Shown one piece after another: positions 11,227 through 14,086 of a stretch of DNA of 64,000 bases. Each line of letters opens with the position of its first letter. Within the stretch, counting starts at the first letter, position 1. Position numbers and translations under genes: made by a program. The stretch covers positions 576,786-640,785 of the forward strand of contig NZ_AOLI01000019.1 in NCBI RefSeq assembly GCF_000336955.1. Direction: 5' to 3'. The stretch comes from Haloferax larsenii JCM 13917 (GTDB lineage Archaea > Halobacteriota > Halobacteria > Halobacteriales > Haloferacaceae). The notes below the pieces were generated by a model, which did no database searches, was not told the origin of the DNA, and was given only the letters and a program-made list of their open reading frames with translations.

Positions 11227-12075
11227 ATGATAGACGAGACCATCGAGGAGATTCGCGAGATGCAGACGCACAGCTCCTCGGTCGTCGCCGTCAAGGCAGC
11301 GCAGTCGCTCGCGGAGTTAACCGAGCGCGACTACGTCACCGTCGAGGAGTTCGAACGCGACCTCGAACGGAACGTCAGCGCACTCAAGCGTGCGAACCCA
11401 TCGCACGCCTCTCTCTACAACGCCTTACAGGAAGTCCTCAACGACGTGCAGGGCGAGGCCGACGACATCGACGAGGCGCGCGAACGAACGCTTTCGACTA
11501 TCGACCGCGTCGTCGAAAAAGTCGAGACGGGCAAACACCGCGCTGCGAAGAACGCCGCCGAGACGTTCGAAGACGGCACGACGTTCCTCACGCACGACTA
11601 CTCCTCGACGGTCATGGAGGCCGTCGAACTCGCCGTCGAAGACGGGGCTGACTTACACGCGTACGTCACCGAGGCGCGGCCGCGCTTCCTCGGTCGCAAG
11701 TTCGCCCGCGAACTCGCCGCCATCGACGGCGTCGAACCGCACCTGATGGTCGACGGTGCCTCGGGACTCTTCCTCCCAAAGTGTGACCGCGTCGTCATCG
11801 GCATGGACTGTATCGTCGACGAGACGCTCTACAACCGCGTCGGTACCTTCCCGCTCGTCGCCGCCGCGAACGAAGTTGGCGTGCCCGTGACTGTCGTCGG
11901 GTCGAGCGCAAAGCTCGTCGATGGCGGCTTCCGCTTCGAAAACGAGATTCGGTCGCCCAGCGAGGTCATGCTCGAACCCGTCGAGGGCATCGAATTAGAG
12001 AACCCCGCCTACGACGCTACGCCTGTCGACCTCATCGACGAGGTCATCACCGACGAAGGCGTCGTGGAGTACTAA
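11227..12075 (+). CDS. eIF2B alpha/beta/delta-like protein
   Basis: A 282-residue protein of the eIF2B regulatory-subunit / ribose-1,5-bisphosphate isomerase / methylthioribose-1-phosphate isomerase superfamily. The C-terminal Rossmann-like half has LTHDYSSTVMEAV, a VTEARPRFLG segment and the GMDCIVDETLYNRVGTFPLV region. Archaea lack true eIF2B exchange factors, so a sugar-phosphate isomerase role is possible. The short N-terminal helical domain and lack of clear isomerase specificity residues leave the function open. The in-frame sequence before 11227 looks non-coding. Confidence 0.82.
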   Translation: MIDETIEEIREMQTHSSSVVAVKAAQSLAELTERDYVTVEEFERDLERNVSALKRANPSHASLYNALQEVLNDVQGEADDIDEARERTLSTIDRVVEKVETGKHRAAKNAAETFEDGTTFLTHDYSSTVMEAVELAVEDGADLHAYVTEARPRFLGRKFARELAAIDGVEPHLMVDGASGLFLPKCDRVVIGMDCIVDETLYNRVGTFPLVAAANEVGVPVTVVGSSAKLVDGGFRFENEIRSPSEVMLEPVEGIELENPAYDATPVDLIDEVITDEGVVEY

Positions 12076-12205
12076 CCGAGGTCGCTATTCGGGGTCTGTT
12101 TTTCAGGAGTCTCTGGTAGCAACCAGTTACCCCTGAAGTTGACTTCACAGGTGGGTAGCTTCCGTTGAAACCTGGCGTGGTTCCCGTGAAGCAATTGGTG
12201 AACAA

Positions 12206-12237
12206 CTAAATGCCTCGGCGTATCTTATTCAGATACG
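12206..12237 (+). promoter_or_regulatory. TATA box plus inverted-repeat operator before the candidate antitoxin
   Basis: A TATA-like CTAAAT (12206-12211) is 27 bases before the ATG at 12238. A perfect inverted repeat, CGTATCT-TATTC-AGATACG (12219-12237), runs right up to the start codon and covers the expected transcription start. This is the arrangement of an autoregulated toxin-antitoxin promoter. Confidence 0.6.
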
Positions 12238-12381
12238 ATGGCACACAAACCCCGGAAAGAGAACCACGACGATGAGGGTCACGAAGAGTTCGTCCCTCAA
12301 GAGGTTCTCGACGGGATCGAAGACTTCGTAGAGGGACGCGTGTCCTCGAAAGAAGACATTGCCAGTGTCCTGAAATTCTGA
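12238..12381 (+). CDS. Candidate antitoxin, 47 residues
   Basis: A short gene read directly from the sequence: start MAHKPRKENHDDEGHEEFVP, end DIASVLKF, 47 residues. The N-terminus is charged and His-rich; the C-terminal half (VLDGIEDFVEGRVSSKEDI) is a predicted amphipathic helix of the kind antitoxins use to wrap a toxin. It starts directly after a 7-bp inverted repeat and is followed 43 bases later by a gene with RelE/ParE-like features. I do not recognise a named family; the antitoxin role is inferred from size, order and operator. Confidence 0.55.
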   Translation: MAHKPRKENHDDEGHEEFVPQEVLDGIEDFVEGRVSSKEDIASVLKF

Positions 12382-12424
12382 ATTCGGGAGTATTTTTTAA
12401 TTTGTTATCGTCGGCACGTGTTGA

Positions 12425-12889
12425 GTGAGTTCCGTTCCCCTCAATAGTGAAGAGACGGTCGCGATATTCGCAGACCAGTTCACGAAATCACTTGGTGGTC
12501 TCGATGCAACGGAACAGCGACGCGTACTCAAGAAAATCCGTCGTGTGTTGGAGAGCGATACTCCATCTCGGCACGTCTACGAGATTCCGACCGGGTGTGA
12601 CACGCTAGAGATTTTTCGCGAAGGGAACATCCTCCGAATCTACGGCAAACTCGTTCTCGGCGTACCCAAGGACAACAAGGAGTACAACATCTTACATCTG
12701 TTTTACGTAGACAAACACAAGTACCGCCAGCGAGACCTCGTTCGGTTCGACGAGTTGGCGGAGAGAGCTCTCAAGCAGGCGACCGTGATATCGTCGCTAC
12801 AGCGGATAGAGGAGTATCTAACATCGAACAAAGCGCTCGACGCCGGTGATGTCCAGCAACTTCTCGACGAGGGCAACAGCCTCTCTTGA
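12425..12889 (+). CDS. Candidate RelE/ParE-fold toxin-like protein
   Basis: A 154-residue protein from a GTG start; the codon before it is a stop, so no earlier start is possible. Residues about 15-90 follow a RelE/ParE-like order: two helices (FTKSLGGLDATEQRRVLKKI), then strands (RHVYEIPTGCDTLEIFREG, NILRIYGKLVLG, YNILHLFYVDKHKY). The C-terminal 45 residues are helical and extend beyond a minimal RelE. A toxin acting on mRNA or gyrase would fit its position after a small antitoxin-like gene. Catalytic residues cannot be assigned with confidence. Confidence 0.55.
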   Translation: MSSVPLNSEETVAIFADQFTKSLGGLDATEQRRVLKKIRRVLESDTPSRHVYEIPTGCDTLEIFREGNILRIYGKLVLGVPKDNKEYNILHLFYVDKHKYRQRDLVRFDELAERALKQATVISSLQRIEEYLTSNKALDAGDVQQLLDEGNSLS

Positions 12890-12967
12890 AAAATCGGTAG
12901 ACAGAGGAATCCCATCGCGCGTTGGCGGCGCGGGAACAGATACTGCTGGCGACGCGTTGTTTCTCAC

Positions 12968-14086
12968 CTAGTCCAGACTGACCCACTCGCCGCTGTCGTC
13001 GGAGCGCTCGATTGCGTCGAGAATCTCCTGTACTTCGTAGGCTTCCTCGAACGAGGGAGAGAACTCACTTCCCTCGGCGGCCGCCGACAGGAACTCGTAG
13101 TTCTCGTGGACGAAAGTGTGCTCCCAGCCGATGACGTGGCCCGGCGGCCACCAGTGGTCCACGTAGGGGTCGGTTTCGTCGGTGACGAGCACGGTTTCGT
13201 AGCCGCGCGAATCACCCGTCATGACCTCCAGTTCGTTGAGGCGTTCGAGCGAGAACTTCAGACTCCCGTCCGAGCCCTGAATCTCGATGGTGTGGTCGTT
13301 CTTGTGGCCGTTGGCGAAGCGCGAGGCCTCGAACGACCCGACCGCGCCGTTTTCGAACTCGGCCTGCGCGGTGTAGGCGTCGTCGACGGTGACGGGCTTG
13401 TACTCGTCCGTGCCCGGAACCGGGCGCTCGTCGACGAACGTCTGGAGGTGTCCAGAGACGCGTTCGATATCGCCCGCAACCTCGCCGACGAGGAAGCGCA
13501 CGAGGTCCACGGTGTGCGCGCCGAGGTCGCCGAGCGCCCCGGACCCGGCGTACTCCTTCTCCATGCGCCACGCCCACGGTGCCTCGGGGTCGACCAGCCA
13601 GTCTTGCAGGTAGCGGCCGCGGACGTGGTGAATCTCACCGAGTTCACCGTCTTCGATGAGGTCTTTCGCGTACTGGATGGCCGGGACGAAACGGTAGTTG
13701 AACGCGCACCCGGCCACGCCGTCGGTGTCGCGGGCGGCGTCGCGCATCGCTTCGGCTTCATCCAGCGTCGGCGCGAGGGGTTTCTCGCAGAAGACGTGCG
13801 CCCCTGCTTCGAGCGCCGCAATCGAGGGTTCGGCGTGGAGGTGGTTCGGCCCGAGGTTGTAGAACACGTCCACGTCGTCGACGACGTCGCGCCAGTCGGT
13901 CGCCGTCGATTCGAAGCCGAATCGGTCGGCGGCGTCGGCGAGCGCCTCCTCGTCGCGGCCGATGATGACCGAGCGCTCGACGTCCGGCGCGTCGGGGAAG
14001 AACATCGGGAGGCGAGCGAGCGCGTTGGAGTGCGCTTTGCCCATAAAGCGGTAGCCTAAGACGCCGACTGTGAGGGGTTCAGACAT
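12968..14086 (-). CDS. Gfo/Idh/MocA family oxidoreductase
   Basis: A 372-residue NAD(P)-dependent sugar or inositol dehydrogenase. The N-terminal Rossmann fold begins VGVLGYRFMGKAHSNAL (GxxxxGxxH-type loop), and the family motif EKPLAPTLDEAEAM carries the conserved catalytic Lys. The C-terminal half is the beta-sheet substrate domain. It lies 6 bases downstream of the TIM-barrel isomerase gene, so the pair probably acts in one sugar or inositol oxidation route. It may belong with the ABC sugar-binding protein at the window start, but 11 kb separates them. Confidence 0.92.
   Translation of the reverse strand: MSEPLTVGVLGYRFMGKAHSNALARLPMFFPDAPDVERSVIIGRDEEALADAADRFGFESTATDWRDVVDDVDVFYNLGPNHLHAEPSIAALEAGAHVFCEKPLAPTLDEAEAMRDAARDTDGVAGCAFNYRFVPAIQYAKDLIEDGELGEIHHVRGRYLQDWLVDPEAPWAWRMEKEYAGSGALGDLGAHTVDLVRFLVGEVAGDIERVSGHLQTFVDERPVPGTDEYKPVTVDDAYTAQAEFENGAVGSFEASRFANGHKNDHTIEIQGSDGSLKFSLERLNELEVMTGDSRGYETVLVTDETDPYVDHWWPPGHVIGWEHTFVHENYEFLSAAAEGSEFSPSFEEAYEVQEILDAIERSDDSGEWVSLD

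What the first reader, a model, noticed from the sequence alone, without database searches (positions are those of the whole stretch)
12206..12889. Candidate toxin-antitoxin module with an operator at the start codon
A 47-residue protein is followed by a RelE/ParE-like 154-residue protein. The promoter has a TATA box at -27 and a perfect 7-bp inverted repeat ending at the base before the ATG. Small size, order and operator all fit autoregulation; the antitoxin does not match a family I know.
Basis: partly seen in the sequence, partly recalled or inferred. Interest (0 to 1): 0.62.

Follow-up and report, generated by a model that had tools for sequence, protein, structure and literature searches.

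The report
New haloarchaeal RelE-like toxin-antitoxin pair
A salt-loving archaeon carries a two-gene cassette that very probably makes a RelE-type RNA-cutting toxin and a tiny protein that blocks it; the family matches no model in the databases searched here, recurs sporadically across haloarchaea, and its antitoxin seems too small to bind DNA, so the proposed 'operator' is probably not one.

Summary
The 154-aa protein matches no Pfam, NCBIfam, PADLOC or PHROG family above chance, but its AlphaFold model (pLDDT 88.6) matches RelE, HigB, YoeB and ParE structures (best VIA Z 9.7), and R71, H98 and Y100 are invariant. Relatives occur in 28 of 391 Halobacteria genomes. All 25 intact copies have an antitoxin-like partner upstream: 20 a homologue of the 47-aa protein, one such homologue split off by a TnpB element, four a large protein whose relatives elsewhere precede PemK/MazF toxins. 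The reverse fails: about 20 antitoxin copies have a broken or missing toxin. The small ORF is under purifying selection. A natural read-through fusion models the antitoxin helices at pLDDT 94-96. The cassette is low-GC and absent from this site in 13 of 14 congeners; the other keeps a toxin relic. TA module: supported. Operator: not supported; the repeat is unique to this locus, not conserved, and arises by chance in about 2-7% of such stretches. A TATA box about 30 bp before the ATG is conserved. Best reading: a new family of type II-like TA in the RelE/ParE superfamily, its antitoxin lacking a DNA-binding domain. Toxicity, RNA cleavage and neutralisation are inferred.

The parts
12206..12212 (+). 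TATA-like element (weak, CTAAATG-type) about 26-32 bp before the antitoxin ATG
   Evidence: 18 of 21 relatives have a clear TATA motif at -36..-22 relative to the small-ORF ATG, versus 0.8% of random positions; the window's own copy is non-canonical and fails that motif
12219..12237 (.). 7-bp perfect inverted repeat with 5-bp spacer, the proposed operator; probably chance or lineage-specific
   Evidence: present; unique in the genome; not conserved in relatives; chance 2-7%
12238..12381 (+). antitoxin candidate, 47 aa
   Evidence: homologues upstream of 20 of 25 intact toxins; dN/dS mostly 0.04-0.08 in close relatives; profile found in 36 of 391 genomes at E<1e-6
12292..12378 (+). conserved C-terminal segment VPxxVLxGIEDxxEGxxSxEDIxxVLKF, predicted toxin-binding helices
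   Evidence: alignment A2; equivalent residues about 20-43 have pLDDT 94-96 in the fusion model
12393..12401 (+). T-rich/TATA-like stretch 24-32 bp before the toxin GTG; possible second leaderless promoter (inference)
   Evidence: sequence only
12425..12889 (+). RelE-fold toxin candidate, 154 aa, GTG start
   Evidence: AlphaFold2 pLDDT 88.6; Foldseek and VIA top matches are RelE, HigB, YoeB, ParE; GTG start conserved in most relatives
12635..12637 (+). codon of invariant R71 (beta strand 70-80)
12716..12724 (+). codons 98-100, holding invariant H98 and Y100, just after strand 87-97
12076..12967 (.). segment occupied by the cassette between two chromosomal genes; about 11-65 bp in 12 of 14 congeners
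   Evidence: the ORF pair 12238-12889 has GC 0.52 versus 0.62 for the window, lowest 0.8% of equal stretches

Best explanation
A type II-like toxin-antitoxin cassette of a new sequence family within the RelE/ParE superfamily. A conserved TATA box about 30 bp before the antitoxin ATG drives a (near-)leaderless transcript; the 47-aa antitoxin is made first, then the GTG-started toxin. The toxin folds like RelE/HigB/YoeB and probably acts as a ribosome-dependent mRNA endonuclease using R71, H98 and Y100 (this target step about 60% likely). The antitoxin is an acidic, disordered N-terminus followed by two short helices that dock on the toxin and block it. It has no DNA-binding domain, so classical autoregulation through the palindrome is unlikely, as in PaaA2-ParE2. 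Shown: ORFs, homology, coding selection, order, co-occurrence, asymmetric loss. Predicted: fold. Inferred: toxicity, RNA cleavage, direct neutralisation, leaderless transcription.
For: Fold: pLDDT 88.6; best matches RelE 2khe (Foldseek E 5.6e-4; VIA Z 9.7, 86 residues, 2.0 A), HigB2, Mtb RelE1/RelE2, YoeB, PaaA2-ParE2, archaeal RelE 1wmi and 3bpq. Invariant R71, H98, Y100. All 25 intact toxins have an upstream partner; co-occurrence 27 both, 9 antitoxin only, 1 toxin only, 354 neither (the one toxin-only genome has the large partner). Toxin loss with antitoxin kept: about 20 loci, e.g. the Halobacterium noricense plasmid against syntenic H. salinarum pHSAL2. Purifying selection on the small ORF. 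Distance matrices of the two proteins correlate, r = 0.86. Fusion model places the antitoxin helices at pLDDT 94-96, pTM 0.80. A divergent branch is paired with a large protein family that elsewhere precedes PemK/MazF toxins. Sporadic, partly plasmid-borne, low GC, empty site in congeners.
Against: No sequence-level match to any RelE/ParE family. No toxicity or binding data. A ParE-like (gyrase) target is not excluded.
Confidence: 0.8

Rival explanations
1. Classical autoregulated type II TA: the antitoxin-toxin complex binds the palindrome 12219-12237 and represses the operon.
For: A perfect 7-bp repeat sits over the presumed start site and is the only copy in the genome.
Against: Not conserved in 21 relatives while the TATA box is; chance 2-7%; antitoxin has no recognisable DNA-binding domain and net charge -7.
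Confidence: 0.12
2. TA module whose toxin is ParE-like and poisons DNA gyrase instead of cutting mRNA.
For: ParE structures are among the fold matches and PaaA2-ParE2 is the closest precedent for an antitoxin without a DNA-binding domain (PMC8630535).
Against: Top matches are RelE, HigB and YoeB; invariant R..H.Y at RelE/YoeB-type positions (residue roles from general knowledge).
Confidence: 0.15
3. A RelE-fold ribonuclease with a housekeeping regulatory role and a small partner protein; not a toxin.
For: RelE-fold proteins with other roles exist (e.g. Cami1).
Against: Sporadic distribution, empty sites in congeners, asymmetric loss, plasmid copies.
Confidence: 0.06
4. The window copy itself is decayed or silent although the family is a real TA.
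For: The window's TATA box is weak; a congener holds only a relic at the same site.
Against: Both ORFs are full length and keep all invariant residues.
Confidence: 0.15

Closest known systems
RelBE / YoeB-YefM / HigBA (RelE superfamily type II TA)
   Same: Toxin fold, R..H.Y-type invariant residues, adjacent small antitoxin, sporadic distribution
   Different: No detectable sequence similarity; toxin has extra C-terminal helices (residues 102-148); antitoxin has no recognisable RHH, HTH or Phd DNA-binding domain
PaaR2-PaaA2-ParE2 of E. coli O157:H7
   Same: Short antitoxin without DNA-binding domain, RelE/ParE-fold toxin (PMC8630535)
   Different: PaaA2-ParE2 has a third gene (PaaR2) for regulation; none is visible here; sequences unrelated
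Panacea (DUF4065) antitoxins, PanAT (PMC8832971)
   Same: One branch of this toxin family has a ~325-aa partner whose family also precedes PemK/MazF toxins, a Panacea-like promiscuity
   Different: No Pfam DUF4065 match; resemblance of KLxYxAIxxxxxPITYGWYKYGP to Panacea is by eye; the window's module uses the 47-aa antitoxin instead
RelE/RHH pair predicted on Haloferax volcanii pHV4 (PMC5566976)
   Same: RelE-like toxin in Haloferax
   Different: Predicted there with a ribbon-helix-helix antitoxin and a COG2026 toxin; unlike this family

Membership tests
Type II toxin-antitoxin module | Two adjacent co-oriented small genes, conserved as a unit | tested here: met
   20 of 25 intact toxins directly follow the small-antitoxin family, 4 a large partner, 1 separated by TnpB
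Type II toxin-antitoxin module | Toxin inhibits growth; antitoxin relieves it | not testable with these tools
   needs expression
Type II toxin-antitoxin module | Direct protein-protein neutralisation | tested here: inconclusive
   fusion model of relative L003 confident for antitoxin helices (pLDDT 94-96, pTM 0.80) but no control and no interface coordinates
Type II toxin-antitoxin module | Toxin not kept without antitoxin, antitoxin may survive alone | tested here: met
   no intact toxin without a partner; about 20 antitoxin loci with broken or absent toxin
RelE/ParE superfamily toxin | RelE fold (beta, two helices, three-stranded sheet) | tested here: met
   E10-15 H17-24 H28-43 E62-66 E70-80 E87-97; leading structural matches are RelE-superfamily toxins
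RelE/ParE superfamily toxin | Match to a curated family model (ParE_toxin, RelE, HigB, Gp49, YoeB) | tested here: not met
   no Pfam toxin match for any of 22 members and no NCBIfam match for the window protein
RelE/ParE superfamily toxin | Basic/His/Tyr active-site residues of RNase members | tested here: inconclusive
   R71, H98, Y100 invariant in 22 sequences; equivalence to RelE/YoeB residues not shown residue by residue
Autoregulated RelB/ParD/YefM-type antitoxin | N-terminal DNA-binding domain (RHH, HTH, AbrB, Phd) | tested here: not met
   no family match; about 20 acidic variable residues precede the toxin-binding segment; N-terminal blocks pLDDT 56-63
Autoregulated RelB/ParD/YefM-type antitoxin | Operator palindrome conserved at the promoter | tested here: not met
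PaaA2-ParE2-type module | Third gene encoding a separate repressor | tested here: not met
   the flanking genes are in the same chromosomal order in congeners that lack the module
Panacea antitoxin (large partner only) | DUF4065 domain match | tested here: not met

The most novel reading that the evidence does not exclude
A haloarchaeal TA family in which a RelE-fold toxin is neutralised by little more than a toxin-binding peptide, with no DNA-binding domain, operator or third regulator, and in which the toxin lineage has swapped between this minimal antitoxin and a large promiscuous Panacea-like antitoxin that also serves PemK/MazF toxins.
Probability: 0.4. Interest if true: 0.6.

Novelty: new variant of a known kind. 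Interest (0 to 1): 0.48.

Why it matters
Archaeal toxin-antitoxin systems are known mostly through families first defined in bacteria. This family is invisible to the profile libraries searched, recurs in at least 22 genera, and offers a natural case of a type II-like module that seems to dispense with autoregulation, which makes testable whether operator binding by the complex is needed for a working TA module. A haloarchaeal genetics system (Haloferax volcanii) exists to test it.

Tried and rejected
Sequence searches against Pfam, NCBIfam, PADLOC, PHROGs and PDB sequences with single proteins and profiles gave only chance-level matches (the Mtb RelB1 hit of the antitoxin profile at E 2.4 was discarded). 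GTDB contig scan, phage records and IMG/VR scans found no relatives. Operator hypothesis rejected as the default for lack of conservation. The look-alike C-terminal tails of the large partner and the 47-aa antitoxin (ETVSPQEVLEELD against GxTASKEDLExxLKF) were tested with the antitoxin profile: two of four ranked top, two did not, so shared ancestry is not claimed. An apparent restriction-enzyme neighbour of the divergent branch proved to be a separate gene end; the true neighbour is the large partner. An improvised dinucleotide shuffle for the repeat (15%) is not relied on because the shuffling was incomplete. Literature search for locus tags and accessions gave nothing.

Full report
Observation. 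The window is a chromosomal contig of a haloarchaeon. Both ORFs and the repeat are at the stated coordinates. The flanking genes are an upstream gene on the + strand ending at 12075 and an oxidoreductase-like gene on the - strand (12968-14086).

Sequence-level identity. Neither protein matches Pfam, NCBIfam, PADLOC or PHROGs above chance. The toxin profile from 22 relatives finds nothing credible in PDB sequences, and no member hits a toxin family in Pfam. The host genome has no ParE_toxin Pfam hit at all.

Relatives. The window's own toxin sequence finds relatives in 29 of 391 Halobacteria genomes spread over 21 of 86 genera; a profile finds 28 genomes in 22 genera. A draw of 393 genomes from the whole phylum gave only matches from the same order. 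Three plasmids in PLSDB carry it: Halolamina pCBA1230-01, Haloarcula taiwanensis pNYT2 and Halobacterium salinarum pHSAL2, all annotated as hypothetical proteins.

Two-gene unit. Of 25 intact toxins, 20 have a homologue of the small ORF directly upstream on the same strand. One has it separated by a TnpB-type element (G281). Four, in a divergent branch, have an overlapping or adjacent ~325-aa gene instead. The small ORF is protein-coding under purifying selection (dN/dS 0.04-0.08 in most pairs, up to 0.19). Antitoxin and toxin profiles co-occur by genome (27 both, 9 antitoxin only, 1 toxin only, 354 neither; p = 7e-33), and their distance matrices correlate (r = 0.86, Mantel p = 2e-4, uncorrected for shared ancestry). 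Loss is one-sided: nine antitoxin loci have frameshifted or truncated toxins and about a dozen have none detectable; some of the latter antitoxins are distant or partial matches and may have other partners. The H. noricense plasmid keeps the antitoxin between the same neighbours as H. salinarum pHSAL2 but has no toxin. This is what is expected if the large protein is harmful without the small one.

Structure. The toxin model (22-row alignment, pLDDT 88.6, pTM 0.85) has the order beta, helix, helix, three strands, then C-terminal helices. Foldseek's leading matches, down to rank 31, are RelE-superfamily toxins or the RelE-type domain of Cami1. VIA gives Z 9.7 to T. thermophilus RelE (86 residues, 2.0 A), 9.4 to HigB2 and 9.0 to Mtb RelE1 and RelE2, and 7.2-7.5 to the archaeal RelEs 1wmi and 3bpq. 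P47, R71, H98 and Y100 are invariant in 22 sequences. From general knowledge of RelE, YoeB and HigB, an Arg in the sheet and His/Tyr near the end of the last strand are nuclease residues; this equivalence was not tested residue by residue.

Pair. In several relatives antitoxin and toxin are in frame, separated by one TAA. Reading that stop through in L003 gives a natural antitoxin-linker-toxin chain. With 29 aligned rows, the antitoxin helices (residues 20-43) come out at pLDDT 94-96, the linker below 50 and the N-terminus about 56-63, pTM 0.80. A pTM that high with about 40 disordered residues suggests that the antitoxin has a defined place on the toxin (inference). There was no antitoxin-alone control, the chain is from a relative, and the interface could not be inspected.

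Operator. The repeat is the only copy in the genome. None of 21 other small-ORF promoters has this repeat or a comparable one at that place; one has an unrelated palindrome. A TATA-type motif lies at -36 to -22 in 18 of 22 promoters, against 0.8% at random, which points to leaderless or nearly leaderless transcripts starting at the antitoxin ATG. The window's own TATA element is a poor match. The antitoxin family is acidic and about 42-54 aa, with a variable N-terminus and no recognisable DNA-binding domain. PaaA2 of E. coli O157:H7 is a documented antitoxin without one, served by a separate regulator (PMC8630535); no such third gene is visible here. Autoregulation through 12219-12237 is therefore unlikely though not excluded.

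Locus history. The segment between the two flanking genes is 892 bp here and about 11-65 bp in 12 of 14 congeners; one has 481 bp of unrelated sequence. G266 holds a degenerate toxin at the same position with a matching right junction. The ORF pair has GC 0.52 against 0.62 for the window, lower than 99% of equal stretches. This fits acquisition by horizontal transfer and repeated loss.

Partner swap. The ~325-aa partner of the divergent branch belongs to a haloarchaea-wide family (45 of 292 genomes) with no Pfam match. Members elsewhere directly precede PemK/MazF toxins (Pfam PF02452, E 1e-14 to 1e-16) or long PIN-like ORFs (weak). That is the behaviour of a promiscuous antitoxin such as Panacea (PMC8832971), and it independently marks the RelE-like protein as a toxin.

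Verdict. The TA reading is well supported by comparative evidence and fold; activity, target and neutralisation are inferred. The operator is not supported. It is a new sequence family of a known kind, with a minimal antitoxin as its main unusual feature.

Noticed in passing
L106:1131-2105, L107:6842-7885, L108:7379-8341, L109:1018-1998; also L115, L118-L142: A haloarchaea-wide ~325-350 aa family without Pfam match that directly precedes PemK/MazF toxins, long PIN-like ORFs or the divergent RelE-like branch; looks like a promiscuous Panacea-like antitoxin whose C-terminal tail varies with the toxin.
   Followed up: partly
L071 / G281:C11:110323-112429; L031:2305-3519: TnpB-type elements sit between antitoxin and toxin in one genome and just upstream of the module on a Halolamina plasmid.
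   Followed up: no
L103:3721-5283 (G266): A congener carries a decayed toxin at the same chromosomal site with about 1.3 kb of further unaligned DNA before it; the antitoxin was not detected.
   Followed up: partly
L045:1018-1498 (G076): Another congener has 481 bp of unrelated sequence in the same intergenic site, so the site may be a repeated insertion point.
   Followed up: no
L033:2046-2779 and L111:268-1001: On two Halobacterium plasmids an AbrB/PIN toxin-antitoxin pair lies about 1-2 kb upstream of the module, i.e. stacked TA modules.
   Followed up: no
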